Below are positions 954 to 52,047 of a stretch of 64,000 bases of DNA, piece by piece; position 1 is the stretch's first letter; every line of letters begins with the position of its first letter. This DNA comes from Candidatus Jordarchaeales archaeon (lineage in GTDB: Archaea > Asgardarchaeota > Jordiarchaeia > Jordiarchaeales > Freyrarchaeaceae). The stretch is taken from assembly GCA_038889235.1 (NCBI GenBank), contig JAWAHN010000001.1, positions 406,499 to 470,498 on the forward strand, written 5' to 3'. A model generated the notes under the pieces. It was given only the letters and a program-made list of their open reading frames with translations, had not been told where the DNA came from and searched no databases. The position numbers and the translations under genes were made by a program.

Positions 954-3497
954 TCATATTATTGTTTTTTTGTTTAAACCACGAATAACAATATAAACAA
1001 TGACAAACGAAACAACATAACACAATAGGACAATATGCAGTTCAATAATATAAGAGAACAAAGACAATAAAAGTGTGTAACAAACAGCGTAAATTATGGT
1101 CATCTTTGCTATCTCTGAGGTGAAAATTCTTACACCTGACCTACCGGTTTTTGAGCTGAAAAAGATGTAGTAAGGCCCTAGAGCTATTATTGCCATTAAG
1201 CTATAAGCGGCGGCTTCTACGTCGAGAAGAGGAAGACCATAATATCGTCTTCCAACAGGTATATAACCAATAGTTGAGGTTGATGTGAAATAAATTATTG
1301 ATGCTAGGCTGTAGAGAAGCGTGTATGGTACTAGTTCTACCTTGCGCTTCAAGTAAGCTAGTATTATTAGGAAAGGTACAACCCAAGATAAATGCTGGGG
1401 GTATATCATGTGGTAGTTAAGGTAATGTGAGAGAATGAGTAAAGCCATTGCTGCAGAAATGTTTAGGATGATTGTCTCCCTTCTTTTCGCAGTATACGCA
1501 TACCATAGCACTATTAATGTAATGATGGCCAGGTAAGACCAGGGGTATAGAGGAAGGGAAGGTCTAAAATGCGCAAGTCCTACCCAGGACGTGAGTAAAC
1601 GGCTTGTATAAGTGGTGCGCGTAACGAAATGAGTGAAGAACTCATGGATTCCTCCAAACAGTATGAATGGCATAAATGCAAGTAATGTTGCGCACGTGCC
1701 TATGGTCAGGGCTTTTACTAGTTGATTATATTTCTTTTTAAAGATAGCTGAGGCAATTAGAAGCGCGTAGCCGGCGAATCCAAACGGCTTCGTTAACCCT
1801 GATAGTACAAATAATGTAGTGGCGGCCTGGAACCTCCGCTTCACGAATAAGAAGTAAAGACCTCCTAGGAGAAAAGAGAGAGCCAGCGTATCGTACATTC
1901 CCCATGCACTTGAAATAAAGATTATGAGTGGATTAAAAAGATAGAGAGATCCGTAGAATACGTGCTTGCCCTCGTTTCTCTTGTCGAATATCTTTACGAT
2001 GAAATAGAAGGATGCAACGTCTGCAAGAATAAAGGGCATCTTAATAAAGATAGCTTCTATCATACCCGTAGAATGAGCTAAGAAATAATAGTCCTGGAAG
2101 CCTAGAATCCTCAGCAACGCGTAAAATGAGTAAGAGAAGAGAAGTAGGTATAAGTAAAGGGGCATCGTTGGCCATAATTCTAAGTGAATGGTTCCTGATT
2201 CATAGTACTCCCTTGCGGCCGCTTTCCAAAATTCCATATCGAATGTATGACCTGTAAAGGGAGCAATTAGTAACCTTAAGGAGACCCCGATAATTAAGAA
2301 AATGAGCAGGTCTCTATGACTAATGTTTCTGCCGTAACTTTTAACATAGATACACGCTACAATGAGGGGAGGCACTATGAAAGTTAGCACTATATAATAA
2401 GTAGTAGCCGTTATAGCTATATTTGGATCTATAGGTATCAACGCTGGATATGTGCGGTTTTTTTCGTAGGTAAGTATAACTTTTTCTACATTAAAGAAGT
2501 CAAAGTAACTGTCCGTTAAGAAGATAACGGAAAGGTTTTTCGTTTCGGTTAGAGTTATATTGGCCAACTCTGTTAGGTAACCAAAGACTCTAAAATTCTG
2601 TGGGTAAATCGCTGCCACTTCATAACAAGGTCTTCCTTCAAGAAGATATGTGAAACCTTTACCTATAATAGGGGTTGTCTCATTCCATATGATGGCATAG
2701 ACTGTGTAATTGCCTCCCTTGAATCCCGAAATTGTGTAATACACTCTAATGTGGGTAAGTGTGTAGTTTCCAATTAGCTCCGGCTCTTGAATGTTCAAAA
2801 CAATTGCATACGCCTTCTCATTAGGTTCCCAAACGCTCTTCATCGATGTTAGGGCTTGAAAAGAGATTTCAGAAATAATTAGTATGGAACTAATTACATC
2901 AAAAGGATAATCTTCCATGATTATTATTATCCTCGTAATGTTTATGTCTTCGCGTCCTGTCGCGATGTAAACAAAATCTTTGAGATTGACGGTTACATTT
3001 TCCCATGCATTCTTTCCTTTCCTATCATCTAGCGGAGAAGTTTCCCAAAATACATTATATACATTCCCGTTATTGTCAACGCCTCTGAATCTTATGTGGT
3101 ATAATATGTCCTTAGATACGAGGATTCTCATCTTAAGTAATGGATACTCACTTACGTTAAGATTTAAATCTCTAGAAACATAAACATGTTCTTTTACACC
3201 TTCTTTTGTAAAAGAAGCATTAACAAATAAGCAACCATTGTCGATTGTTAGCTCTGAGTGAGCTGTACCTCCAGACTGCCATTTATTTAATTCGTCCTCG
3301 GCCCAAAAGTCTATTTTAAATTCATCGGCTAACGAAATTTCATAAGGCACTACAAAAGTGTCAGACTGAGCTTCTAAAACTAGATATGTCTTGGGTAACT
3401 GACCTCTTAATGAAAACATGAGTATAACACCGACAAACATGAATATTAGTAGAAGTACGAAAAATCTTCTGCGCCTAATTAGTAAACCCAATCGCAT
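954..3497 (-). CDS. Large membrane protein, GT-C-like glycosyltransferase
   Basis: 847 residues. A single N-terminal membrane segment (about residues 10-30) precedes a roughly 340-residue soluble, beta-rich extracytoplasmic region. Around eleven hydrophobic segments follow from about residue 370 to the end. After the first of these is a loop with acidic residues (HTFDMEFWKAAAREY), the type of lumenal Asp/Glu motif found in polyprenyl-phosphate-sugar-dependent GT-C mannosyltransferases (PIG-M/GT87-like). The inferred role is sugar transfer from a lipid-linked donor at the outer membrane face. The reversed domain order, with the soluble domain first, is less usual. It lies between the GT4 gene and the FrhB-like gene on the same strand. 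Confidence 0.7.
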   Translation of the reverse strand: MRLGLLIRRRRFFVLLLIFMFVGVILMFSLRGQLPKTYLVLEAQSDTFVVPYEISLADEFKIDFWAEDELNKWQSGGTAHSELTIDNGCLFVNASFTKEGVKEHVYVSRDLNLNVSEYPLLKMRILVSKDILYHIRFRGVDNNGNVYNVFWETSPLDDRKGKNAWENVTVNLKDFVYIATGREDINITRIIIIMEDYPFDVISSILIISEISFQALTSMKSVWEPNEKAYAIVLNIQEPELIGNYTLTHIRVYYTISGFKGGNYTVYAIIWNETTPIIGKGFTYLLEGRPCYEVAAIYPQNFRVFGYLTELANITLTETKNLSVIFLTDSYFDFFNVEKVILTYEKNRTYPALIPIDPNIAITATTYYIVLTFIVPPLIVACIYVKSYGRNISHRDLLIFLIIGVSLRLLIAPFTGHTFDMEFWKAAAREYYESGTIHLELWPTMPLYLYLLLFSYSFYALLRILGFQDYYFLAHSTGMIEAIFIKMPFILADVASFYFIVKIFDKRNEGKHVFYGSLYLFNPLIIFISSAWGMYDTLALSFLLGGLYFLFVKRRFQAATTLFVLSGLTKPFGFAGYALLIASAIFKKKYNQLVKALTIGTCATLLAFMPFILFGGIHEFFTHFVTRTTYTSRLLTSWVGLAHFRPSLPLYPWSYLAIITLIVLWYAYTAKRRETIILNISAAMALLILSHYLNYHMIYPQHLSWVVPFLIILAYLKRKVELVPYTLLYSLASIIYFTSTSTIGYIPVGRRYYGLPLLDVEAAAYSLMAIIALGPYYIFFSSKTGRSGVRIFTSEIAKMTIIYAVCYTLLLSLFSYIIELHIVLLCYVVSFVIVYIVIRGLNKKTII

Positions 3498-3587
3498 ATG
3501 TGATTCACCAACAATGTTGTTACATAAAATAACAGTATCTTCTCCTAAAGGATGTGATTTACCACAAATCAGATCATATTACTTTTA

Positions 3588-4790
3588 TCAATTTTTCTCT
3601 CTTTTTTCTAAAGTTAAAGTATCAAGAAGTAGCTTTGCCGACTGCTCTATAGTGAAATTGCTGAGAACCCTTCTTCTGGCCGCAAGTCCCATTTCGTTTA
3701 CAAGTTCATCGTCTTGAAGCAGTATTTCCATCGCTTCAGCTATTTCGTGAACATTGTAGGGGTCTACGAGAAGGCCCGTCTTGTTATGAATAATGCTTTC
3801 ACTTGTCCCGCCAATGCAAGAAACTATGCTGGGTCTTCCATGGAGTGCGGCTTCGAGTGGCGTTAACCCAAAGGGTTCAGCAATTGCAACATGCACTAGA
3901 AATCGGCTACATGAATACAACTTCATTAATTCATCGTCAGTCACTTTCGTCAATATATGAAAGTTCTTCAAACCTGAAGAAGCGCTTAATAAATTCCTCT
4001 TAAGTGGTCCATCACCAACTATAACTGCTCTTATATCAGGATGATTCTTCTGAACAATTTTCAGGGCCTCTATTAATCTTAAATGATTCTTTATTGGAAT
4101 AATAGCTCCAACCGATAAGATGAGCTTCGACTTACCGGGTTCAATCTGCTCCTTCTCGTGAAAGAAGTTATACTCAATGCCCGGATATACTACATGAACA
4201 TTTTTGGCACCATACAAACGCGTTATTACCCTTTTAGTGAAATAACTATTCGCGATCACCATTTTGAAGCTATGGATGCTATTGAGGTCTAATGTTCTCG
4301 CCATATATACTATGGGCTTATAGAAAAGCTCGAGAAGCACCCTAAAGGAAGCCCCATAAAGCGTCTCACAAGTACTTAAGACTGTTTCCTTGTTAATATC
4401 GTAACTTTGCCCAGAAACGTAGTCTTCCCATATCGCTCTTAGAGGCTCTCCGGAATACCAAACGGCCTTATGATCCAGAGTTTTGCTAATAAACCACAGT
4501 AGAGAAGGATCCACATGATGGTGAATCAGTACAATATCAAAAGCTTTTAGGCGTTGAATCGTCTTGTAAGACTTGTGTAGGTTAGGTTTCATATTCTTGA
4601 ACAACAATGGCAGTGTTTGGATGTTTATTTTGTGAGATTCTAGCCGAGAAAGCCAATAAGAAGGTAGTAAACCACCATAGAAAAGAGCAACGTCAATGCC
4701 CATTTTCTTCAGTTCTATTGCATGTAGAATACACAACTTTTCGGCCCCTCCAAATCTGCCCAGCGCTGTATGAACAAAGGCCACTTTCAA
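3588..4790 (-). CDS. Glycosyltransferase family 4 (group 1)
   Basis: 400 residues. The N-terminus MKVAFVHTALGRFGGAEK is the standard GT-B start with a glycine-rich acceptor-site loop (FGGAE). The C-terminal half has the donor-site signature: SVGAIIPIKNHLRLIEAL, then IVGDGPLKRNL, then the E-x7-E element within EPFGLTPLEAALHGRP. It should transfer a sugar from a nucleotide donor to a lipid- or protein-linked glycan at the cytoplasmic side of the membrane. Its start overlaps the end of the upstream small gene by 4 nt, so they form one operon running toward the membrane glycosyltransferase. Confidence 0.9.
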   Translation of the reverse strand: MKVAFVHTALGRFGGAEKLCILHAIELKKMGIDVALFYGGLLPSYWLSRLESHKINIQTLPLLFKNMKPNLHKSYKTIQRLKAFDIVLIHHHVDPSLLWFISKTLDHKAVWYSGEPLRAIWEDYVSGQSYDINKETVLSTCETLYGASFRVLLELFYKPIVYMARTLDLNSIHSFKMVIANSYFTKRVITRLYGAKNVHVVYPGIEYNFFHEKEQIEPGKSKLILSVGAIIPIKNHLRLIEALKIVQKNHPDIRAVIVGDGPLKRNLLSASSGLKNFHILTKVTDDELMKLYSCSRFLVHVAIAEPFGLTPLEAALHGRPSIVSCIGGTSESIIHNKTGLLVDPYNVHEIAEAMEILLQDDELVNEMGLAARRRVLSNFTIEQSAKLLLDTLTLEKREKN

Positions 4791-18357: not shown

Positions 18358-18873
18358 TTGAGCACGTATGTTTTCAAGGTGGTTATGGTTGGTGACCCAT
18401 CCGTTGGGAAGACTAGCCTTGTTATGAGGTATGTGAAGGGGTTCTTCGAATACGACTACAAGGCAACCGTCGGGACACAGATAATGAGCAAGGAGGTTCA
18501 GGTTAAAGGGTTAACGGTCAAGTTGATGATATGGGATATCGGTGGCCAGGAGAAGTTTAACACGTTAGCTCCGGCATATTATAAGGGTGCGGCTGGAGGA
18601 CTCGCAGTTTTTGACTTAACACGAAAAGAGACCTTTGAAAACCTGTCTAAATGGATTTCACGCTTAAGGACTTACGCAAACCCAAACGTGTCCATTGTCA
18701 TAGTTGGAAACAAGTCCGACTTGGTGGACGAAAGACAGGTCTCGCTCGAGGAGGCTATGGAGCTAGCAGAAAAAATCGGAGTCCCCTATATAGAGACGTC
18801 TGCCAAGAGCGGGAAAAACGTTATCAAGGTTTTCGAGATAATCGCTGAGAAAGTAGTAACTAAGAAAATTTAA
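18358..18873 (+). CDS. Rab/Ras-like small GTPase
   Basis: 171 residues, a complete Ras-fold domain. P-loop GDPSVGKTSLVMRYV; switch I threonine in KATVGTQ; G3 WDIGGQEKFNTLAPAYYKGA (the Gln used in hydrolysis is present); G4 NKSD; G5 ETSAKSGKNV. The sequence between switches follows the Rab pattern (tyrosine pair YYKGA, FDLTRKETFENLSKWI). It has no C-terminal cysteines, so no prenylation is expected. A TTG start lies behind GGAGGAG. Such GTPases are common in Asgard and some TACK archaea. The partner is probably one of the roadblock or coiled-coil proteins nearby (inference). Confidence 0.93.
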   Translation: MSTYVFKVVMVGDPSVGKTSLVMRYVKGFFEYDYKATVGTQIMSKEVQVKGLTVKLMIWDIGGQEKFNTLAPAYYKGAAGGLAVFDLTRKETFENLSKWISRLRTYANPNVSIVIVGNKSDLVDERQVSLEEAMELAEKIGVPYIETSAKSGKNVIKVFEIIAEKVVTKKI

Positions 18874-19665: not shown

Positions 19666-20196
19666 TCACTTGGTTATTTTTTGAGCCAAGTTCTTGACTA
19701 TGAGTGAGGCTAGGGATGTGAAAACGTCCTCTACGCACGTGCCAGTTTTGGCCGATGACTCGAAGTAGGGTATGTTAAGTTTGCTTGCAAGCCTTGCGCC
19801 GTCTTCAAAACTTACCTTTCTTTGGGGTGAAAGGTCGACCTTGTTTCCAACGAGGATTAAAGGTATGTTACCACAGTAGCGTTTCACCTGCGCCACCCAG
19901 TCTTCAACGTTTCTAAACGACTCAGGGTTGGTCACGTCGAAGACTACTAGTGCGCCTTGCCCTCCTTTAAAGTAGTTTGGAAGCAGAGGCTTAAACTTCT
20001 CCTGCCCACCAGTGTCCCATATTGTTAGCTTCACGGAGAGGCCGTCTATGTACACTATTTTCGAGTAGAAGTTGACCCCTAATGTCGGCATATAGTTCTC
20101 TTTGAAAGAGCCTGTCGTGAACCTGAGCGTGAGACTGGTCTTACCCACCCCTCCATCGCCAACGACGAGGACTTTGAAGTGGTAATTTGGAAGCAC
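19666..20196 (-). CDS. Rab/Ras-like small GTPase
   Basis: 176 residues. P-loop GDGGVGKTSLTLRFT; switch I YMPTLGVNFYSK; G3 WDTGGQEKFKPLLPNYFKGG; G4 NKVD; G5 ESSAKTGTCVEDVF. All catalytic elements are present, including the G3 glutamine. It lacks a C-terminal prenylation cysteine and differs clearly from the GTPase at 18358, so it is an old paralogue and not a recent copy. It starts ATG 20196 behind GGAGGAGGA. It sits divergent from the 78-residue gene at 20400. Confidence 0.93.
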   Translation of the reverse strand: MLPNYHFKVLVVGDGGVGKTSLTLRFTTGSFKENYMPTLGVNFYSKIVYIDGLSVKLTIWDTGGQEKFKPLLPNYFKGGQGALVVFDVTNPESFRNVEDWVAQVKRYCGNIPLILVGNKVDLSPQRKVSFEDGARLASKLNIPYFESSAKTGTCVEDVFTSLASLIVKNLAQKITK

Positions 20197-21827: not shown

Positions 21828-22190
21828 TTACGTCAACGCTTCCGCTACACTTTTACATGCTTCCTCAAGTGCCTTAACGAGGTTGGGGGCGGCTGTCTTT
21901 GATGAGAGCACTAGGAGGAACGCCTTGGAGCCTGCACCTATGATGGTGATTACTCCTCCCTCTATTTCTAGGGATAGGTGACGAGCTATTCCTCTCTTGA
22001 CGGTTTCAGCGGCTACTTCCGCGGCTCCAAGCATTGAGGCAGACATAGCGGCGAGCCTGCTAACGTTTATGTCGTGGGGCATGAGCGATTCAAGAACGCT
22101 CCCGTTTCTCATCGCGACGAGACAGCCTTCAACCCCCTCCAATGATTGGAGCCTCGTCAGAACCTTTTTAATCTTTTCCCTAAACTCCAC
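21828..22190 (-). CDS. Roadblock/LC7-domain protein
   Basis: 120 residues, one roadblock domain: LQSLEGVEGCLVAMRNGSVL, then AAMSASMLGAAEVAAETV, then GGVITIIGAGSKAFLLVL. These proteins dimerise and regulate or anchor small Ras-like GTPases (MglB-like). It lies 16 nt from the KaiC-GTPase fusion gene and 22 nt from the KaiC-like gene, all on one strand. It is the likely regulator of the fused GTPase or of the Rab-like proteins nearby. Confidence 0.88.
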   Translation of the reverse strand: MEFREKIKKVLTRLQSLEGVEGCLVAMRNGSVLESLMPHDINVSRLAAMSASMLGAAEVAAETVKRGIARHLSLEIEGGVITIIGAGSKAFLLVLSSKTAAPNLVKALEEACKSVAEALT

Positions 22191-25666: not shown

Positions 25667-25713
25667 GTTAAGTAGGAATACATGGTGAATTGTTACTTTC
25701 ATTCCTACTTAAC
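25667..25713. repeat. 13-bp perfect inverted repeat at the end of tnpB
   Basis: The arms GTTAAGTAGGAAT (25667-25679) and ATTCCTACTTAAC (25701-25713) flank a 21-nt loop. The hairpin covers the stop of tnpB and lies just after the radical SAM stop. It may be part of the right-end/omega-RNA structure of the element, or a bidirectional terminator between the two convergent genes. Confidence 0.7.
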
Positions 25714-26823
25714 CCTTCCCTCTCGATTAACTCATTGAGGGCTCTTTGGGGGAACCCTGCTCCCCGCATCTGAAGGTTTAATACCGCTACAACGTCTCTA
25801 TCCATTGTCAATCCGCATTTTTCGCATCGCATTATCCTGCCCCCATAGGAAGCCATGCTTCCTGAACACAGGGGGCAGACCTTGGAGGAGTTTTTAGGAT
25901 CAACATATTTTACTGGTAGGTTAAGCCATTTAAGCTTGTATTCGAGCATGAACTGAAATGCCCTTGCGTTCCACTTTGATAGCTTGCGGTTCATTTTCTT
26001 TGAGCGGTTTAGAATTCGCCTCTTTACGCCTTTCAGGTTTTCAAGTATTGCTCCGCAGCTCTTTTCTTTCAGCTCCTTCGCTATGCTTGCGGTTAGCTTA
26101 TGCATGAAGTCCCTTGCCTTATTCCTCTCACACTTAGAATACTTCTTGAGGAGCATCCTTGATGTATTAGGCTTAATCTTAGATAGCTTTTGTATCCTTT
26201 GCCGCCTGACTTCATAGGCTCTGTGGATGTGATAGAGTCCTCTTAAGTCATAGCGCCTAATCTCGCCATCTATGAGTGCCGTTACGTTTGTCAGGTTCAC
26301 ATCAAAAGAAGCCCACCTATCCGCTTTAGGCTCAACGTCCCTCTTAACCGTAACTATGAGCTCCTTCTCGGTTAGGATTAAACCTCCAACTCTGTCGAAG
26401 TCTTTCGGAATCCATGAATACTTATTCAAGTCAACCTCAAGATACCGCTTATTGGGCTCTATGCTTATCTTTAGTATGCTGTTTCTGAAGCTGAAGAGCG
26501 TGCTCTTAATGTAGACTGTTCTTCTGGTTATCTCAGGCTTACTTTCAGCTCTCCCTCTGTTGTAGAGCGTTATCCAGCCCTTAACAAGCCCTATGACTGA
26601 GTTTATTGCTGAATCGACATAGTGCTTTGAAAACCTCCAGTCTTTCAGCAGCTCACCTCTAAGCTTCCTCCTATCCTCCCTACTGAGGGTTAGACGGGCT
26701 CTATTAGAAAACCTTACATGGGCGAAAATATGCTCCAAGGCTCTCTGCTTAACCTTGAAGTATTCTTCGATTAAATCCCCCTGGAGTTCCTACTGGGATT
26801 CTGTAGCTCTTAACTGCCTCCAC
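25668..26823 (-). pseudogene. tnpB: TnpB (IS607/IS605-type RNA-guided nuclease), N-terminal frameshift
   Basis: About 385 codons in total. The opening EAVKSYRIPVGTP is in one frame; from DLIEEYFKVKQRALEHIF on it is in another. The break is at a G5 run near 26783. After that the 356-residue body is complete: RuvC Asp in WASFDVNLTN, Glu in GAILENLKGVKRR, the zinc finger CPLCSG-x-CEKCG, and the final Asp in MDRDVVAVLNLQMRG. A TTG at 26738 could still give a nearly full nuclease that lacks the first 30 residues. Decay or a single homopolymer error would both explain the break. Confidence 0.75.
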
Positions 26824-32694: not shown

Positions 32695-32702
32695 TTTAAA
32701 TA
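32695..32702 (+). promoter_or_regulatory. TATA box of the hdrA-mvhD operon
   Basis: TTTAAATA lies about 50 nt before the TTG start at 32753, giving a leader of about 25 nt that includes the GGAGGAGGTG ribosome site. Confidence 0.5.
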
Positions 32703-32752
32703 AAAATAGATCTTTGTTAAGACGGACAGCATGGAGGAGGTGTTAAAGAGGT

Positions 32753-34693
32753 TTGGGAAGTGAAATTACTCCTCGCATAGGTGTCTTCATATGCCACTGA
32801 GGCAAGAACATAGCTGGCGTCATCGATGTCGAAGCGCTCAAAGACTATGTTTCAACGCTGAAGGATGTCGTCTGGGTTGAGACCTACATTTCTCTCTGCA
32901 CACACGCCGGGGCGGAGCTGATAAAGGCGAGGGTGGAGGAGCACGAGCTGAACAGGGTGGTTGTCGCGGCGTGCACCCCTAAAACCCACGAAGAAGTCTT
33001 TAGGAGAGTGTTGCTCGAGGCTGGTCTGAGCCCCAGCATGTTGGAGTTCGTGAATATCAGGGAACACGATTCCTTCGTCCATATGACGGATCCCAAAAGC
33101 GCCTTAGAAATGGCTAAGGACGTTATAAGGGGAGCGGTGGCTAAGGCGAGACTTCTTGAAGAGATACCACGCATGCTACTTCCCGTGACCCCCAGTGTCC
33201 TCGTGATAGGGGGAGGCATAAGTGGCATACGGGCTGCGCTCGAAGTGGCTGAAAGCGGGTTCAAAGTGTACTTGGTTGAAAAAAGTCCGACGATCGGCGG
33301 GAGAATGGCGATGCTTGACAGAACTTTTCCAACGAATGACTGTGCCATCTGAATACTTGGCCCGTTAATGCTTGAGACTGCCAGGAGGGAGGAAGTGGAA
33401 ATTCTCACTTATAGCGAGGTCGAGTCGGTTGAAGGAAACGTGGGGGACTTCAAGGTTAAGGTTAGGAAGAAACCGAGGTATGTTAACGAGGAGCTCTGCA
33501 ATAGCTGTGGGGCATGCGCTGAGGTCTGCCCTGTTTTCATACCGAGTAGCTTCGATCTAGGGCTTGGAGTGAAGAAGGCGATACACCAGCCGTTTCCACA
33601 GGCTGTCCCACAAACGTACCTCATAGACATTGAGAGGTGTATAAGGTGCGGGCTGTGCGAGAAGGTGTGTGACAAGAAGGCTATAGACTTCAACCAAAAG
33701 GAGCAGGTAATTGAGCTGGAGGTCGGAGCTATAATAGTGGCTTGTGGCGGTGATTCCTATACGCCGAGGTTCGGTGAGTATGGCTACGGCAAGTATGCCA
33801 ACGTGATAACTCAGTTCCACTTGGAGAGAATGCTTGCCCCGAACGGACCAACGGGTGGAGAGGTTGTGAGGCCATCTGACGGAAAGAAACCTAGAAGAGT
33901 TGTCATGATCCAGTGCGTTGGCTTTAGAGATATGAAGAGGAACGAGTATTGTTCCAACGTGTGCTGCATGGTGGCTATCAAAAACGCGATGCTATTAAAG
34001 CAGCACTTGCAGGATGTCGAGGTCTTTGTCTGCTATACTGACGTGAGGTCGTACGGTAAGGGCTACGAGGAGTTCTATGTTCAGGCGAGGGAACATGGTG
34101 TTATATTCCTAAGGGGGCGCGTTGGAGAGGTCGTCGAGGACGCCGATACAGGTGAGCTCTTAGTAGTGGTCGAGGACACGCTTTCAGGCAGAGTAATTGA
34201 GCTAAGAGCTGACCTAGTCGTCCTCTCAACAGGAGTTGTGCCATCAAGTGACTTAAGCAGGATAGCCGAGATTCTGAAGCTCGAGCGGAGCCCAGATGGA
34301 TTCATAAAGGAGTTACACTCACGCTTAGCTCCAACAGACACTAAAATGCGCGGCATATATGTCTGCGGCGATGCGCAGGGGCCAAAGGCCATAGATGCGT
34401 GTGTAGCTCAGGCGAAAGCTGCCGCGGCATCTGTCATCAGCCTTCTTTCTATCGGAAAGGTGGAGCTCGAGCTTGCTACAGCAGTCGTCAAGGATGACAA
34501 GTGTAGTGGCTGTGGGCTTTGCGAGCTCGTCTGCCCCTACAACGCTATAAGCGTCGGCGACGTCGCAACGGTAAACGAGCTCCTGTGTAGGGGGTGCGGT
34601 AAGTGCGCTGCAACATGTCCCTCTAAGGCGATTTATAGGAGGGGTTACAGGGAGGAGCAGCTTGAAGCATACATAGATGAGATCGCGAAATAG
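32753..34693 (+). CDS. hdrA: Heterodisulfide reductase subunit A-like protein with two in-frame TGA codons (probable selenocysteine)
   Basis: 646 residues if both TGA codons are read, the normal HdrA length. TGA at 32798-32800 gives ICH-U-GKNIAG, where HdrA has CHCG. TGA at 33350-33352 gives NDCAI-U-ILGPLM, where HdrA has Cys in its TFPT-x-DC-x-x-C-ILTP segment. Both sit in unbroken HdrA sequence: FAD site VLVIGGGISGIRAALEVAES and VEKSPTIGGRMA, then four ferredoxin-type clusters (CNSCGACAEVCP, CIRCGLCEKVCD, CSGCGLCELVCP, CRGCGKCAATCP). HdrA is the flavin subunit that bifurcates electrons. A TTG start follows GGAGGAGGTG by 10 nt; an in-frame TAA at 32744 excludes longer forms. mvhD follows after 11 nt; hdrB and hdrC are not in the window. 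Confidence 0.9.
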
Positions 34694-34704
34694 GAGGATG
34701 ATGG

Positions 34705-35187
34705 ATGACTGAACCCAAAATCGGGGCCTTCCTCTGCTGGAAAGGGTTTGACAGCCCCCAGAAATGAGGTTATGGTGCTGCAGACATGGCGGGGACGATG
34801 AGGCTGCAGTATCCCGCTGCAATTAGGCCGATAAGAGTGCCGTGCGCCGGCAGAGTTTCAGCGGACTTGATAGCTAGGTTACTGTGGAAAGGTGCGGATG
34901 GCGTAATGGTTGTAGGGTGACGAGTCGGTGAGTGTGCGTTTGAAAACGGGAACATTATGGCAGCAAGGCACGTCGAGATAGTTCAAGACCTGCTGGAACT
35001 TATGGGTCTTGGCGCGGGGAGGGTGACGATGGTTTACTGCTCCTCGGCTGAGGGCAAATACTTCGCTGAGGCGGTTAGAGAAGTAAGCGAAAAAGTGAAG
35101 GCCTTGGGTCCTAACCCTTTAAAGGCGAAAAAAGCGGATGAGCTTGGAGCCAAAAGCGCACGAGCTCCAAGTGACCCCCTCAGCTAA
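34705..35187 (+). CDS. mvhD: MvhD/VhuD-like [2Fe-2S] electron-transfer subunit with two in-frame TGA codons (probable selenocysteine)
   Basis: 160 residues if both TGAs are read. TGA 34765-34767 (residue 21) gives SPQK-U-GYGAADMAGTMRLQY; the family has NWC-x-Y-x-x-ADLAG there. TGA 34918-34920 (residue 72) gives VMVVG-U-RVGECAFENGN; the family has GCHPGDCHY-x-x-GN. The rest is typical: IRPIRVPCAGRVS, then WKGADGVMVVG and VYCSSAEGKYFAEAV. MvhD links a hydrogenase or formate dehydrogenase to HdrA. An ATG start follows GGAGGATG. Without recoding, only a headless C-terminal piece from 34957 would be made. Confidence 0.9.
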
Positions 35188-35213: not shown

Positions 35214-35275
35214 ATATCTCAATAAAAGTTTCAATGGTTGGTTGTAGTGTGTAACAAAAATGTTCTCTCGGGTTG

Positions 35276-36295
35276 ATGGGTGTGAGCGACAAAGGAGTCG
35301 AGTGGTTAGCATGTAAGAGTGATGTATACGCCTTGCTGCGTAGTTTGGTTAGGTGTTTACTGGAGGAAGGGGAAGTCTCAGGTGTCGCTTCAGGAGAGGT
35401 TAAAGAAGAAAAGATTTCACTGCGCATAGTTAGGGATGTTAAGGAAGTCGACGAGGCGCCTTTAGACCGTGTTTTGCTTTACGGTTACCGTGGACTGGAA
35501 TCGCCTGTCAGAGCCGTTAGAGATAGGAAGGGGGAAAGACTAGCTATTCTTGTGAAGCCGTGCGAAGCGAGAGCCTTGATTGAGCTCTCAAAAAGGAAGC
35601 AAGTTAGCCTAAGTTCGACGTTCGTTGCAGGTTTTGATTGTCCCGGAGTGAGCGTGAACAACACCGAGGGTAGCTTACTGGCTTTGAGCGACGCACCAGA
35701 ATACGAGGTTCTGAGGGAGGCATGTAAAAGGTGTGAGGTGCACACACCCCCATATAGCGACGTGGTGATAAGCCTGCTTGCATCAGCCGACATACCCCTC
35801 GTGAGGGCTGGGACCGAAAGGGGAGTGAAGATGCTCAGGATCCTTGAAAGAAAGGGGATTCGCTTCGGTAATCCGAGCCGAGAGCTTCTTTCGAAAAGGG
35901 AGGAAAAGTTAAAGATGCTGAACGAGAACGGTAAAAGGAGACTGGAGGAAGAGGAGAAGGAGCTGCTTTCAAAACCTGCCGCTGAGAGATTCTCTTGCTT
36001 CATGAGCTGGCTTGACTCATGCATTAAGTGTGGTGCGTGCATAAGGGCTTGTCCAATTTGTTACTGTAAGGATTGCATAGTTACGGCTAGACGAAAAGAT
36101 TACGCTCCTTCATTCTTCCTAGTTACGAAAATGCTCCACATGGCGGATTCCTGCGTTTGCTGCGGTAAGTGCGATGAAGTCTGCCCGAAAAGCATACCGT
36201 TATCGTATATATTCTACCACCTGGGAAGGAGGTTTGCCTCCAGATACAACTACCTAGCAGGAGTAGACTTCTCGAACCCTCCAAGAATAATCTGA
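35276..36295 (+). CDS. FrhB/FdhB-like iron-sulfur electron-transfer protein
   Basis: About 339 residues. The FrhB-type opening contains KPCEARALIELSKRKQ (F420/flavin region) and GFDCPGVSVN. The C-terminal third has two cluster motifs, CIKCGACIRACPICYCKDC and CVCCGKCDEVCPKSIP, and FYHLGRRFASR. This matches the beta subunit of formate dehydrogenase/F420-dependent enzymes that pair with Hdr complexes. All cysteines are encoded by TGT/TGC. It starts 88 nt after mvhD on the same strand, so it probably supplies electrons to the MvhD-HdrA module. The start may be ATG 35276 or GTG 35282; ribosome sites are weak. Confidence 0.8.
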   Translation: MGVSDKGVEWLACKSDVYALLRSLVRCLLEEGEVSGVASGEVKEEKISLRIVRDVKEVDEAPLDRVLLYGYRGLESPVRAVRDRKGERLAILVKPCEARALIELSKRKQVSLSSTFVAGFDCPGVSVNNTEGSLLALSDAPEYEVLREACKRCEVHTPPYSDVVISLLASADIPLVRAGTERGVKMLRILERKGIRFGNPSRELLSKREEKLKMLNENGKRRLEEEEKELLSKPAAERFSCFMSWLDSCIKCGACIRACPICYCKDCIVTARRKDYAPSFFLVTKMLHMADSCVCCGKCDEVCPKSIPLSYIFYHLGRRFASRYNYLAGVDFSNPPRII

Positions 36296-36783: not shown

Positions 36784-36891
36784 TGGTAGCCCGGCCCAGA
36801 TTCGAATTCCTCCCGTGTCTGGGGTCCCGGGGTCCAGAGCCCCGGATGCTTGGCCGCTCCGCGCCCCCTAAAGGCTCTACACCACCGGGCT
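36784..36891 (-). tRNA. tRNA-Gln (anticodon CUG) with two non-canonical introns
   Basis: Acceptor arms AGCCCGG and CCGGGCT pair perfectly and are followed by an encoded ACCA. The anticodon arm is CGGGG-CTCTGGA-CCCCG, with CTG at 36835-36837. Pairing shows two insertions. The D-loop between its 4-bp stem is 29 nt instead of about 9, so about 20 nt (around 36857-36876) is extra. The T-stem CCCAG/CTGGG encloses 12 extra nt (36807-36818) before the normal TTCGAAT loop. Removing both gives exactly 76 nt. There is no intron at the canonical 37/38 position. Exact splice points are uncertain by a few bases. Confidence 0.9.
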
Positions 36892-36915
36892 TCCAGTTTT
36901 AGGAGAATAACGAAG

Positions 36916-37529: not shown

Positions 37530-39763
37530 TTACAGCGTGTCTATGTACTCCTCAGGTTTCGGCGGTTCTGGTTTCAGTCCTTTTCTCTTCCGGATTTCAG
37601 CTATTACTTCACTTAGCAGAGACTTTGGAACTTCAGCCCACCTTGAGAACTGTGTTTGCCAGAAAGCTCTGCCAGAAGTCTTTGACCGCAAGTCATTTGC
37701 AAGCCCGAAGCTTTCTCTTACCGGTATCTCTCCATTCACGAATACTAGCGGGCCACGCTGCTCTATGTTTATAACATGACCTCTGCGCTGGGATAGTATG
37801 CTTGAAACCGCCCCTATGTACTCTGGTGGGACCATTACTTGGATCTTGTATATTGGCTCGAGCAGGGTTGGCTTGGCGCTTAGGAATGCACCCCACGTGG
37901 CACGCCTGCTCATAGGCATGATTTGCGCTGGCCCTCTGTGAACGGGGTCCTCGTGCAGCTGGCAGTCCGTCACTATTACTTTAACGCCTCTCATGGGCTC
38001 CTCGGCAAGGGGACCTGCTTCGCAAGCCCATTTTATCCCTGATATTATTGTCTCCTTCACCTCACGTAGGTACTGGATGCCACGCGTCCTGTCAACTATC
38101 ACATTGCCGTACTCGTCAATCGCCCAAATGTTCCTGGCGTCATGAGGGTCCCAACCAGCTTTTTCTCTCAGAATCTTCGCCCTCTCATCTCTCTCTTGGT
38201 ACTCCGATATTTCGCCCTCCGTGAGCAGGTTTACCGTCTCCTCGTTAAGCGGCTCAACCATGATCCAAATCCTGTTGTGCTTGTTCGGGCTTTTTCCTAG
38301 TACCGGCTGGGAGGACGAGGTGACCGTTTCCCTGTAGACCACTATTGGCGGTGAGACTGTGATATCAACTTCTGACTGGATTTCCTTCAGAGCTATTTCG
38401 AGGTGTAGTTCGCCCATTCCCGAGAGCAGGTATTCTCCGGTTTCTTGATTAATCGTCGTCACTATGTTCGGGTCTTGAATCGAGATTTTCTGCATCAGTT
38501 CCACAAGTTTCGGTAGATCTTTCGGGTGTTTCGGCTCTATGGCTACGGTGACAACAGGCTCTGAAATGTACTTAATTTTTTCAAATGGAACCACGATGTC
38601 CTTTATGTTTTCGGCTACCACGGTTTCTCCAGCTCTAGCCAGCTCCAGTCCGAGCAGAGCCGCTATGTTGCCAGCTGGTATGGAACTGACTATGGCTCGT
38701 TTGGCACCCATGTAAATGCTCGTCTGCTGAACCCTGTAACCTTTCTTAGCTGTGAGCAGGTAAACTTGGTCTCCTTCACTTATCGTGCCGGAGAAAACTC
38801 TCCCCGTCGATACTATTCCCGCGTGGGGGTCGACTATAACCTTGTTTAGACAAATTACAGTTGGGCCGTTCTCATCGCACTCAAGCATCGCTTTTCCTAT
38901 CTCGCTGTTAAGGTCCCCGTGCCAGATCTTCGGCACTCTGTAGCGTTGAGCCTCAATCGGGTTGGGAAGGTGGTCGACGACCATGTCCAACACAGCAGCA
39001 TGAACCGGGAGAAGCTTCTTGAGCTCGTCTACCCTATCTTCCTTGTAATAGGCGACTATGTCACTAAACTTCAACCCTAACTCGAGCATTTGAGGAACAG
39101 TAAACCCCCACCTGTGAAGGGCTGAACCAAAGGCCACGCTACCATTAGCCGGATTAACCTTCCACTTGTTGGCGAACTCCTTCTCACCATAAATGTCGAT
39201 TAAACCATTAAAATCTCGAATAATCCTGTTAAGCTTCTCTTGGACGCCGCGCTCGTCAAGCCTTAACTCGCGGATTAAACGGTCAATCTTATTAATAAAC
39301 AATACGGGTCTGACACGCTCAGATAAAGCCTGTCGAGTAACGGTTTCCGTTTGGACGCCTATCTCCTCTACGGCATCTACCACTACGACCGCGCCGTCAA
39401 TTACTCTTAAAGCTCTCGTAACGTGCCCGGTGAAGTTTACGCGAGCGAGCCAGCCGGCTCGTTCTCTACGTGTCCGGGCGTGTCTATGAGGTTTATGAGG
39501 TACTCTTTCCCGTCGAACTTGTGCACTAGAGATATGTTAGCGGCTTTTATTGTTATCCCTCTTTTCTGCTCCTCTTCAAGGTAGTCCAATGCCCTTGCTT
39601 CTCCCGCTATCGTTGGGGAGAGTAGCCCAGCTTCAGCAAGCAGGGAGTCGCTTAGCGTTGTTTTGCCGTGGTCGACGTGTGCTATTATTCCGAAGTTCCT
39701 TATCTGCTCTTTCACTCGCATCATTCTTTCAACTTCTTCAATGTACTTCATCCTTGCAGACAA
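37530..39763 (-). CDS. fusA: Translation elongation factor aEF-2, interrupted by a 29-nt insertion
   Basis: Joining 39763-39467 with 39437-37530 gives 734 residues, the normal aEF2 length. G1 [16 protein letters not shown]2 [13 protein letters not shown]3 DTPGHV, then [21 protein letters not shown]4 NKID. Domain IV carries the diphthamide loop [15 protein letters not shown] with its His present. It drives ribosomal translocation with GTP. Unspliced, the frame stops 9 codons after DTPGHV. The TTG start at 39763 follows GAGGTGG. A second aEF2 copy is not in this window. A sequence error is unlikely because 29 nt with internal symmetry would have to be added. Confidence 0.92.
39438..39466 (-). 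other. Probable 29-nt archaeal intron within the aEF2 gene
   Basis: GTA occurs at both junctions (CACGTA before, GCGTA after), so the exact cut can shift by up to 3 nt. Inside, CGAGCC and GGCUCG form a 6-bp hairpin with loop GGCU. Further out, exon ACGU can pair with intron-end GCGU (4 bp, one G-U). This helix is flanked by 3-nt bulges AGA and AAA on opposite strands, the arrangement of a bulge-helix-bulge splice site. Cuts after the first base of each bulge would restore the frame exactly. Confidence 0.75.
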
Positions 39764-49513: not shown

Positions 49514-51319
49514 TTGATAAGAGTTAGCGGGGTTTTCGGTAACGGTCGACTTCTTGGGGTTCTTGATAAGAAGGGTGATATGAGGTGGCTTTCGTGGCCT
49601 ATGGTGGACTCGCCGAATCACATTGAAAAATTGGTTTTTAGATTTCACCGAGAAAGGCAAATTTACGATGCTTGGAAGCATAGTGCTAGCTACGTGGAGA
49701 GGACTAATGTTATCTTTTTTGTCAGCCGGGGTCGGGGTTTGCAGGTTGACAGATACGTTTTTGCCTTACCAGAGGATGATGTAGTTGTTTTTTACTTTAA
49801 CATTTTTGGAGGGAAAGGGGAACAGAGGGGTGTTGCAATAAATTTTTGGGGTCATTTTAGAGTGGCCGAGAGTAGTATAGGGAACGCCGCATTCTATGAC
49901 GAGGAAAAAGAGGCTCTTGTATTTTACAAGAAGGGGTATTACTTTGCCGTTGGAGGCGATAGACCTGTTAACGAATATTCCTGTTTTAGAGTGGATGAAA
50001 GGAGGGGGGGTGGTTTCGGGCGGAGGGCGGTAAAGGGAAAAGGTGTTTGCTATACGCTGGGAGATGTTGGAGGTTACCTAAAGTGGGATCTGGGGAGACT
50101 GTCTAGTGGGAGAGGGGAGGTCGCAGTGTATATTTGCTGTGGGAAGAACATTGACGAAGCAATTTCTCTTCTCAACGAAAAAACTAAGAGGCATGCTAGG
50201 AAGCATCTAGAAGAAGCCATTAGTGATGGAGAAAAGTTTACATTTAAGAGTAAGTTGTCCGGAGCCGCTGTTACACGCTCTTTACTGGCAATGCGTTTGT
50301 TGTGCGATCGTGGCGGCGGGATTATTGCTGCTCCAGAGTTTGACCCCAGGTTCCGGCGTAGTGGCGGTTACAGGTATGTTTGGGGGAGGGATGGAGCGTT
50401 CGTTGCCTACGCATTTGACATTGCCGGGCACCATGAGCTGTCAAGAAAATTCTATGCCTGGTGCTCTGGGCTCGAGAAAAAGAATGGTTTACTCTTTCAG
50501 AGGTACTGTTGTGATGGAACGCTTGCATCCCAGTGGAGGGAAGTCCAGTTGGATGAGACCGGAACAGTTCTGTGGGGACTAGAGAAACACGTTGAAATGA
50601 CTGGCGATTACAAGTTCCTCTCTTCTGTCTTAAACATGGTTGAGGAAATGGCTGATGGGTTGGCAAGCTCCGTGGATGAAAGAGGACTCCTATCGCCATG
50701 CTTCGACTTATGGGAGGAGAGGAAGGGAATCCACGCTTACTCTACTGCAGCAGCCCATGCTGGGCTTGAAAGCGCCGTGAAGATGATAGAGGAAGTGGGT
50801 GGAAGCGAAAAGGTGGAAGTGTGGCGTGGTGCGGCTCGTAGGTTGAGGGAAAGCTTTAATAACTTCTTTTGGAACGGGAAGCACTTTGTTCGAACATTGA
50901 ACCAGAGAGATTTGAAAGCGGACACGACACCAGACTCATCTCTCTTAGGGTTAGCGGTCCCGTTTAGTTTTGTAGAACCAACTAATTTCAAAATGAGAGC
51001 AACCGCAGAGTGGATTGAAAAAGAGTTAATGCGTGGAGGAGGTGTTTTGAGGTATAAAAGAGACAAATACTTTGGAGGGAACCCTTGGACCGTCACGACA
51101 CTCTGGTTGGCTCTCTACAAAGCGGAACTAGGACTGGAGGAGGAGGCTATGAAGCTGGCTGAGTGGTGTCTATCACACTCGAACGAACTTGGACTGCTTC
51201 CTGAGCAAGTTCACAGGAGGAAGGGGACACCGCTGTCGGCGACCCCGCTAGGATGGGCTCATGCTTTCCTCGTAATGTTTTTCGATAAACTGGGGGAATT
51301 AAAATGGCAGAGACGCTGA
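49514..51319 (+). CDS. Glycoside hydrolase family 15 (glucoamylase-like)
   Basis: 601 residues. An N-terminal beta domain (GVLDKKGDMRWLSWPMVDSP, then GDVGGYLKWDLGRL) precedes the (alpha/alpha)6 barrel with YRYVWGRDGAFVAYAFDIAG (catalytic-site WGRDG), LDETGTVLWGLEKHVEMTGD and CFDLWEERKGIHAYSTAAA, where the first catalytic Glu lies. The second Glu is in LLPEQVHRRKGTPLSATPLG, with the usual PL-x-W-AHA end. It hydrolyses alpha-glucosides such as glycogen, maltose or trehalose. No signal peptide, so intracellular. The TTG start at 49514 follows GAAGGGGAG. Overlaps the E1-like gene by 16 nt. Confidence 0.92.
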   Translation: MIRVSGVFGNGRLLGVLDKKGDMRWLSWPMVDSPNHIEKLVFRFHRERQIYDAWKHSASYVERTNVIFFVSRGRGLQVDRYVFALPEDDVVVFYFNIFGGKGEQRGVAINFWGHFRVAESSIGNAAFYDEEKEALVFYKKGYYFAVGGDRPVNEYSCFRVDERRGGGFGRRAVKGKGVCYTLGDVGGYLKWDLGRLSSGRGEVAVYICCGKNIDEAISLLNEKTKRHARKHLEEAISDGEKFTFKSKLSGAAVTRSLLAMRLLCDRGGGIIAAPEFDPRFRRSGGYRYVWGRDGAFVAYAFDIAGHHELSRKFYAWCSGLEKKNGLLFQRYCCDGTLASQWREVQLDETGTVLWGLEKHVEMTGDYKFLSSVLNMVEEMADGLASSVDERGLLSPCFDLWEERKGIHAYSTAAAHAGLESAVKMIEEVGGSEKVEVWRGAARRLRESFNNFFWNGKHFVRTLNQRDLKADTTPDSSLLGLAVPFSFVEPTNFKMRATAEWIEKELMRGGGVLRYKRDKYFGGNPWTVTTLWLALYKAELGLEEEAMKLAEWCLSHSNELGLLPEQVHRRKGTPLSATPLGWAHAFLVMFFDKLGELKWQRR

Positions 51320-52047
51320 ACGCGGAGGAACTTGAAAGGTACTGTAGACAAATAGCTATCGAAGGATGGGGGGAGGAGGGGCAAAAACGGCTTAAGAAAT
51401 CGACTGTAGCTGTAATAGGGGTTGGTGGTTTAGGATCACCTGTTTCGCTTTACCTTGCGGCGGCGGGTGTGGGTAAACTGATTCTCGTCGATGACGGCAA
51501 AGTAGAGTTAAGTAACTTGAACAGACAAGTGCTCCACTGGAGTAAGGACGTTGGAAGACCCAAGGTTGAAAGCGCCATGGAGAAAATTAGGGAGCTAAAC
51601 CCCAAGGTCATAGTTGAAAGTATTAAGGGGAGGGTTAGCGAGGGAAACGTTTACGAGATAGTTAGGAAAGCGGATGTAGTAGTTGACGCCATGGATAACT
51701 TTGCGTCCAGAATGCTGGTTAACAAGGCATGCATTGACGAGGGGAAAGTTTTCGTTCACGCTGGGGTTTATGGATTTCAAGGTCAGTTGACGACGATAAT
51801 TCCAGGGGAGGGGCCATGCCTCCAGTGCATCTTCCCTAACCCACCGCCTGTTGAAGACGCTATCCCCGTGGCGGCACCAATCCCCGGTATATTGGGTTGC
51901 ATGCAGGCAAACGAAGTGATAAAAGTTGTGACGGGGATAGGTAGACCCCTCGTCGGGCGACTGTTAATATATGACGGGGAGGACTCCAGCTTTATCATCG
52001 TTGACGTGAAAAGAGAAGAGAAATGCCCTGTGTGCGGCGTCACCTAA
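51304..52047 (+). CDS. ThiF/MoeB/HesA-type E1-like adenylyltransferase
   Basis: 247 residues. The opening YCRQIAIEGWGEEGQKRLKK is followed by the ATP motif VIGVGGLGSPVSLYLAAAGV, LSNLNRQVLHWSKDVG (the Arg finger) and VVDAMDNFASRMLVNKACID. Then HAGVYGFQGQLTTI, CLQC and, at the C-terminus, CPVCG: a complete zinc site of four cysteines. It adenylates the C-terminal Gly of a small beta-grasp protein (ThiS/MoaD/SAMP-like) for sulfur transfer or conjugation. The partner is not in the window. Translationally coupled to the glucoamylase gene by overlap. Confidence 0.92.
   Translation: MAETLNAEELERYCRQIAIEGWGEEGQKRLKKSTVAVIGVGGLGSPVSLYLAAAGVGKLILVDDGKVELSNLNRQVLHWSKDVGRPKVESAMEKIRELNPKVIVESIKGRVSEGNVYEIVRKADVVVDAMDNFASRMLVNKACIDEGKVFVHAGVYGFQGQLTTIIPGEGPCLQCIFPNPPPVEDAIPVAAPIPGILGCMQANEVIKVVTGIGRPLVGRLLIYDGEDSSFIIVDVKREEKCPVCGVT

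What the first reader, a model, noticed from the sequence alone, without database searches (positions are those of the whole stretch)
34705..35187. MvhD/VhuD with two UGA codons at its conserved cysteines
TGA at 34765 replaces the Cys of the NWC motif and TGA at 34918 replaces the first Cys of GCHPGDC. The intervening 50 residues and all residues after are typical MvhD. Four UGA codons at four conserved cysteines in two adjacent genes cannot be chance decay. The [2Fe-2S] site of MvhD may thus contain two Sec ligands or a Sec pair.
Basis: partly seen in the sequence, partly recalled or inferred. Interest (0 to 1): 0.9.

Follow-up and report, generated by a model that had tools for sequence, protein, structure and literature searches.

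The report
Selenoprotein gene split by tiny intron
In an Asgard archaeon the small hydrogenase-linked protein MvhD really is encoded with two selenocysteine (UGA) codons, which is already a known kind of protein, but its gene also carries a previously unreported 21-base hairpin that looks like an RNA-spliced intron, and two other genes of the same organism (selD and elongation factor 2) carry such introns too.

Summary
TGA at 34765 and 34918 lies in frame in an mvhD/vhuD gene of a Jordarchaeum-like Asgard archaeon; hdrA upstream has two more. Related MvhD genes carry UGA at site 1 in 16/16 cases and UGA or Cys (13:3) at site 2. The genome holds SelB, SepSecS, PSTK, SelD and a UCA-anticodon tRNA-Sec candidate. 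A eukaryote-like SECIS at 35138-35174 is the only strong hit in 64 kb. UGA is an ordinary stop elsewhere. So both UGAs are almost surely selenocysteine. That is not new: HdrA and MvhD selenoproteins are published for Jordarchaeia, and PDB 9sfi/9t1s show a close MvhD with non-standard residues at both sites.

New: 34743-34763 is a hairpin insertion directly before the first UGA. Three congeners have 22 nt there, out of frame, with both flanks under codon-level selection. All four fold as a bulge-helix-bulge (BHB) whose excision gives the same CWKU motif as intron-less homologues. selD (30-34 nt, all seven informative Jordarchaeia genomes, strong covariation) and EF-2 (29 nt, here and one congener) have similar introns; unspliced, they do not read through. 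The genome has two splicing-endonuclease genes. Known coding BHB introns were limited to cbf5. Splicing is inferred; no transcript was seen.

The parts
32753..34693 (+). hdrA, two in-frame UGAs at 32798-32800 (CHUG) and 33350-33352 (DCAIU); TTG start assumed
   Evidence: NCBIfam HdrA2 838 bits
34705..34742 (+). mvhD exon 1 (MTEPKIGAFLCW + first two bases of the Lys codon)
   Evidence: PKIGAFLCWK differs only at synonymous positions among four species
34743..34763 (+). putative 21-nt BHB intron (AGGGTTTGACAGCCCCCAGAA); 22 nt in three congeners
34764..35187 (+). mvhD exon 2, starting one base before the first Sec codon; continues to the TAA stop
34765..34767 (+). UGA, Sec site 1 (CxxU after splicing)
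   Evidence: UGA in 16/16 related genes; residue X at this site in PDB 9sfi_K
34918..34920 (+). UGA, Sec site 2 (GURVGEC)
   Evidence: UGA 13/16, Cys 3/16; residue X at this site in PDB 9sfi_K
35138..35174 (+). type I eSECIS-like element AUGA-9 bp-CAAAAG loop-GA, inside the 3' end of the mvhD reading frame
   Evidence: only hit of score >=9 on both strands of 64 kb, 0.05 expected in mononucleotide shuffles; counterparts in three congeners
35273..36295 (+). third gene of the cluster: iron-sulfur protein (Fer4_8, FrhB_FdhB_C-like); ends in UGA as a normal stop
39437..39465 (-). putative 29-nt BHB intron in the EF-2 gene (same kind of element)
37530..39763 (-). EF-2 gene in two ORFs (39763-39437 and 39383-37530); excision joins them into one frame of 734 codons (upstream start not fixed) with HVDFTGHV

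Best explanation
The gene encodes a double-selenocysteine MvhD/VhuD, the electron-transfer subunit that works with HdrA. Ribosomes read both UGAs as Sec with the archaeal/eukaryotic machinery (SerRS, PSTK, SepSecS, SelD, SelB, tRNA-Sec) directed by an eSECIS-like hairpin at the 3' end of the mvhD frame, probably shared with hdrA. Before translation, a 21-nt bulge-helix-bulge intron (34743-34763) is cut out of the pre-mRNA by the tRNA-splicing endonuclease and the exons are joined, so that the mRNA reads UGC UGG AAA UGA (C-W-K-Sec) as in intron-less homologues. Similar introns interrupt selD and EF-2. Shown by sequence: UGA/Cys alternation, machinery genes, SECIS fold, BHB geometry, compensatory changes (selD), selection on both flanks and restoration of frame and motif. 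Inferred: actual splicing, Sec insertion and the protein's function.
For: Sec: SepSecS 412 bits; SelB 306 bits, about 0.7 kb upstream of SepSecS; PSTK 192 bits, below the model's cut-off; SelD; tRNA-Sec candidate, UCA anticodon, conserved in 5 of 8 genomes; UGA/Cys alternation; UGA the stop of 11 of 43 other window ORFs; SECIS; PDB 9sfi/9t1s. Intron: 35 and 40 (22 nt out of frame in JNZ, LHC, QC4; LHC and QC4 have no start codon between an upstream in-frame TAG and the UGA), 48 (upstream PKIGAFLCWK codons change only at synonymous sites; exon 2 dN 0.08-0.16 against dS 0.39-1.9), 49, 75 and 91 (one BHB register in each of four species, the same spliced product; 0.0017 chance per sequence), 52, 55, 58, 62, 64, 65, 70, 71, 74 (selD intron: frame break or TAA in all informative Jordarchaeia, absent in other Asgard SelD; 7 of 8 inner-helix pairs change on both sides, 84/84 cells paired), 92, 97, 100, 101 (EF-2), 60 (two PF01974 endonuclease genes).
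Against: No transcript, protein or selenium data. In the window itself the insertion is in frame and without a stop, so it could be translated as seven extra residues. The mvhD helix has few variable pairs and no double-sided change. The outer helix is short or weak in all three introns. The tRNA-Sec scores below Rfam's gathering cut-off because it seems to hold introns of its own. A SECIS inside the reading frame is unusual for archaea. Huang et al. 2024 (PMC11227280) did not count Jordarchaeia as Sec users.
Confidence: 0.86

Rival explanations
1. Double-Sec MvhD without splicing: in this species the 21-nt insertion is translated as GFDSPQK and only the congeners need another trick.
For: 21 nt is in frame and stop-free here.
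Against: It would lengthen CxxU to Cx9U, unlike all 12 insertion-free Sec-type relatives; three congeners with the orthologous hairpin have 22 nt, out of frame; the BHB geometry is kept in this copy too.
Confidence: 0.08
2. Programmed translational bypass or frameshift over the hairpin, as in T4 gene 60, with AAA as take-off and landing codon just before the Sec codon.
For: Identical AAA codons flank the hairpin in all four species.
Against: selD and EF-2 have insertions of the same geometry without matching codons at the junction, and selD in JNZ and the second family contains an in-frame TAA. One mechanism (BHB splicing) explains all three.
Confidence: 0.03
3. Decaying pseudogene: the UGAs and insertion are disabling mutations.
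For: Standard annotation would see a broken gene.
Against: dN/dS about 0.1 in exon 2, UGAs only at conserved Cys positions, second intact double-UGA copy (L005), same UGAs across two families.
Confidence: 0.01
4. Genetic-code change (UGA = Cys or Trp throughout the genome).
For: UGA alternates with Cys codons.
Against: UGA ends 11 of 43 other ORFs in the window; SelB, SepSecS, PSTK and SelD are present.
Confidence: 0.01

Closest known systems
MvhD/VhuD with two Sec residues (review table PMC13188914: PF02662, CxxU, 2 Sec; PDB 9sfi chain K and 9t1s)
   Same: Family, and both Sec positions: 9sfi_K reads CYQX-GYGAAD and GXKPNEC, aligned with CWKU-GYGAAD and GURVGEC. That X stands for Sec is my inference.
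   Different: The gene here is interrupted by a BHB intron one base before the first UGA; the SECIS lies inside the reading frame.
Jordarchaeia selenoproteins HdrA, MvhD, Prx (Sun et al. 2021, PMC9723677)
   Same: Same class of organism and the same genes; its MAG LHC_1308 is G002/L029 here.
   Different: I found no mention of introns in the passages read. SelD is not among the three selenoproteins listed there, perhaps because its frame is broken by the intron.
cbf5 pre-mRNA BHB introns of Crenarchaeota (PMC2738675)
   Same: Size 16-44 nt, BHB-like fold, EndA-dependent excision, gain and loss between lineages.
   Different: Different phylum (Asgard) and genes (mvhD, selD, EF-2); in mvhD the splice site abuts a Sec codon; splicing not yet shown here.
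Asgard eSECIS-like elements (PMC11227280)
   Same: Type I: AUGA, stem, A-rich loop, GA; one element near the hdrA-frhD pair.
   Different: Inside the coding region in Jordarchaeum mvhD instead of the 3' UTR.

Membership tests
MvhD/VhuD (PF02662) | Profile match over the Pfam cut-off | tested here: met
   135.2 bits against 22.3
MvhD/VhuD (PF02662) | NCBIfam VhuD exception model NF045873 cut-off | tested here: not met
   149 bits against 215; it is an MvhD-type protein but not Methanococcus VhuD in NCBI's narrow sense
Selenoprotein | In-frame UGA at conserved Cys positions, alternating with Cys in relatives | tested here: met
Selenoprotein | Sec machinery in the genome (SelB, SepSecS, PSTK, SelD, tRNA-Sec) | tested here: met
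   tRNA-Sec below Rfam's gathering score, PSTK below the NCBIfam cut-off
Selenoprotein | SECIS element on the transcript | tested here: met
   structural candidate, not functional proof
Selenoprotein | Selenium present in the protein | not testable with these tools
   needs mass spectrometry or 75Se labelling
Archaeal BHB intron | 4-bp central helix between two 3-nt bulges on opposite strands | tested here: met
   mvhD 4/4 species, EF-2 2/2; selD 7/7 for central and inner helix and 5' bulge, with the 3' side only weakly closed by an outer helix
Archaeal BHB intron | Excision at symmetric bulge positions restores the reading frame and conserved protein motif | tested here: met
   CWKU, SDVYAKGAT, HVDFTGHV
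Archaeal BHB intron | Splicing endonuclease present | tested here: met
   two PF01974 genes
Archaeal BHB intron | Spliced RNA observed | not testable with these tools
   no transcriptome held
T4 gene 60-type bypass | Identical take-off and landing codons around the gap | tested here: inconclusive
   met for mvhD (AAA/AAA), not met for selD and EF-2

The most novel reading that the evidence does not exclude
Jordarchaeia carry many EndA-spliced BHB introns in protein-coding genes, essential ones included, i.e. an Asgard lineage with general non-spliceosomal pre-mRNA splicing; in mvhD, selD and tRNA-Sec it sits in the selenium pathway and could gate selenoprotein synthesis.
Probability: 0.45. Interest if true: 0.87.

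Novelty: new variant of a known kind. Interest (0 to 1): 0.72.

Why it matters
Protein-coding BHB introns have been known essentially from one gene, cbf5, in Crenarchaeota (a 2020 paper, PMC7714728, still counts only that one plus a 5'-UTR case it adds). Finding them in three further genes, one of them the essential EF-2, in Asgard archaea, the closest known prokaryotic relatives of eukaryotes, would show that enzyme-driven mRNA splicing is broader in archaea than thought and that gene callers miss such genes. It may also explain why SelD was not among the Jordarchaeia selenoproteins reported in 2021 and why the 2024 survey did not count the class as a Sec user. In mvhD two rare decoding layers, splicing and UGA recoding, meet within one codon.

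Tried and rejected
Rfam tRNA-Sec search first pointed to a tRNA-Leu; the true candidate scored 27.8 bits because it holds insertions. Weak Rfam hits in the region (RF_site8, mir-133, lncRNAs) are chance. A permissive BHB scan of the window gave hundreds of hits and cannot find introns on its own; homology breaks were needed. SECIS search in the 3' UTR and after the third gene found nothing until the end of the coding region was included. PDB codes 9SFI/9T1S gave no paper in the library, and Mariotti 2016 is not held. Frameshift, bypass, code change and pseudogene were considered and rejected as above.

Full report
OBSERVATION. hdrA directly upstream (32753-34693) has two further in-frame UGAs, at 32798 and 33350. 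A third gene, an iron-sulfur protein, follows at 35273-36295.

HOST. HdrA finds Candidatus Jordarchaeum MAGs at 82-85% identity (JNZ_1113, LHC_1308, QC4). Four further genomes of a second family in the order were available.

SELENOCYSTEINE. The genome has SelB (306 bits) about 0.7 kb upstream of SepSecS (412 bits), a PSTK homologue (192 bits; the model's cut-off is 290) and SelD. A tRNA-Sec candidate with UCA anticodon (C1:336000-336136) scores only 27.8 bits because it seems to contain introns; it is conserved in G002, G003, G005 and G007. In 16 Sec-type MvhD genes site 1 is always TGA; site 2 is TGA in 13, TGT in 2 and TGC in 1. HdrA has UGA at DCxIU in 16/16; at CxUG the window and QC4 have UGA, JNZ and LHC have Cys. 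UGA is an ordinary stop in 11 of 43 other window ORFs, so the code is not changed. An eSECIS-like hairpin (AUGA, 9 bp, CAAAAG loop, GA) sits at 35138-35174 inside the last part of the mvhD frame; it is the only hit of score 9 or more on both strands of the window, with 0.05 expected in mononucleotide shuffles; LHC and QC4 have the same element, JNZ a weaker one with mismatches. In the paralogous operons of own, LHC, QC4 and three second-family genomes, similar elements lie in the 3' UTR.

KNOWN PART. Jordarchaeia HdrA, Prx and MvhD were reported as selenoproteins in 2021 (PMC9723677). The 2026 review lists two Sec in FrhD/MvhD/VhuD with the motif CxxU and one in HdrA (PMC13188914). PDB 9sfi chain K (also 9t1s) is an MvhD with X at exactly both sites (CYQX-GYGAAD, GXKPNEC), and 9sfi chain A an HdrA with X at the DCxxX site and Cys at the first. 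I infer that X is Sec. The double-Sec MvhD is therefore not new. A Sec at HdrA's N-terminal CxUG site may be less well known, but I did not search it exhaustively.

THE INSERTION. All homologues without insertion read C-W-K-U or C-L-K-U. The window reads C-W-K-GFDSPQK-U because 21 nt are inserted. JNZ, LHC and QC4 have 22 nt at the same place, which puts the N-terminal part and the UGA part in different frames. Both parts are under coding constraint: the PKIGAFLCWK codons vary only synonymously among the four species, and the downstream part has dN 0.08-0.16 against dS 0.39-1.9. The start codons (ATG, or GTG in JNZ) and an upstream purine-rich stretch are kept in the N-terminal frame; in LHC and QC4 the UGA frame has no ATG, GTG or TTG between an upstream TAG and the UGA.

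FOLD. The four insertions fold alike: outer helix CCUC(U)G:UGAGG, central helix CUGG:CNGG of exactly 4 bp, a 3-nt bulge AAA on the 5' strand, inner helix GGGYG:CGCCC (or its equivalent in the window), and a 3-nt bulge AAA on the 3' strand. This is the bulge-helix-bulge recognised by archaeal splicing endonuclease. In each species only one register fits, and cutting both bulges after the second base gives the identical product CCTCTGCTGGAAATGAGG, i.e. L-C-W-K-U-G. A shuffled insert between the same flanks shows such a fold in 0.17% of cases. Covariation in mvhD alone is weak: three pairs vary, all on one side only.

SECOND INTRON, selD. In the own genome and LHC selD is broken into two frames; in JNZ and all four second-family genomes it is in frame but holds a TAA. 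The insertion is 31, 34 and 30 nt in own, LHC and JNZ and 30 nt in the second family by the same register. Excision gives SDVY-AKGAT (own, JNZ, LHC) or NDVY-AIGA/GT (second family), matching the intron-less NDIYAMGA of other Asgard SelD. SelD of the other Asgard genomes sampled carries only the Sec UGA and no break. The inner helix has changes on both sides in 7 of 8 pairs with 84/84 cells paired, above all 500 shuffles for cells paired and covariation score.

THIRD INTRON, EF-2. On the minus strand of the window the EF-2 gene is two ORFs, 39763-39437 and 39383-37530. Removing 29 nt (39437-39465) with the same BHB geometry gives one frame of 734 codons reading [18 protein letters not shown]. 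JNZ has a 29-nt insertion at the same point with a different inner helix (9 of 9 pairs) and the same spliced product. EF-2 is essential and I saw no intact second copy among the GTPase hits, though that search was not designed to find one, so a working mRNA must be made somehow.

MACHINERY AND PRECEDENT. The own genome and five of its seven relatives hold two PF01974 genes each; LHC and JNZ, which are incomplete, show one. Two genes suggest a heteromeric enzyme of the broad-specificity kind known from Crenarchaeota; this is inference. Known precedent: cbf5 pre-mRNA introns of 16-44 nt in Crenarchaeota (PMC2738675); a 2020 paper still called that the only additional BHB intron reported besides its own 5'-UTR case (PMC7714728). 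I found no report of BHB introns in Asgard protein-coding genes in the library, which lacks most subscription papers.

MECHANISM. Most likely: transcription of hdrA-mvhD-Fe/S gene; excision of the 21-nt intron by splicing endonuclease and ligation; translation with Sec inserted at both MvhD UGAs, and at those of HdrA, through SelB and the SECIS at the end of mvhD; assembly of an Hdr-Mvh electron-transfer complex. The splicing, decoding and assembly steps are inferred.

LIMITS. In this window the insertion is in frame, so an unspliced product cannot be ruled out for this species.

Noticed in passing
37530-39763 (-), intron 39437-39465: EF-2 gene split by a 29-nt BHB-type insertion; congener JNZ has one at the same site (L161).
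   Followed up: yes
G000:C1:553189-554197 (L174 about 3190-4200; intron from 3442): selD with a 31-nt BHB-type insertion and an N-terminal Sec UGA; insertion shared by all seven informative Jordarchaeia genomes, absent in other Asgard archaea sampled.
   Followed up: yes
32700-32800: hdrA has no clear conserved start codon: TTG in the window, ATG/GTG upstream in QC4, none of ATG/GTG/TTG after the upstream in-frame stop in JNZ and LHC, while a seven-codon ORF with a purine-rich leader overlaps the start in all four. A further intron, or an unusual start, is possible.
   Followed up: partly
32798-32800: Sec UGA at HdrA's N-terminal CxUG site, alternating with Cys between congeners; the 2026 review lists only one Sec for HdrA.
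   Followed up: partly
36786-36895 (-): tRNA-like gene missed by ARAGORN, apparently intron-containing (CUG-like anticodon in GGGGCTCTGGACCCC).
   Followed up: no
L146 (G000:C1:336000-336136, -): tRNA-Sec candidate with apparent insertions in D-loop, anticodon loop and T-loop, scoring far below Rfam's cut-off.
   Followed up: partly
L159 (G000:C1:748885-749298): Second hdrA-mvhD pair with UGAs at the same sites, no mvhD intron, and a textbook eSECIS-like element in its 3' UTR.
   Followed up: partly
18358-18870 (+), 19669-20196 (-), 21831-22190 (-), 51304-52044 (+): Eukaryote-like signature genes: two Ras-family GTPases, a Roadblock/LC7 protein; also a ThiF-family (E1-like) gene.
   Followed up: no
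25668-26738 (-): Cas12f1-like/OrfB (TnpB-type) transposon protein.
   Followed up: no
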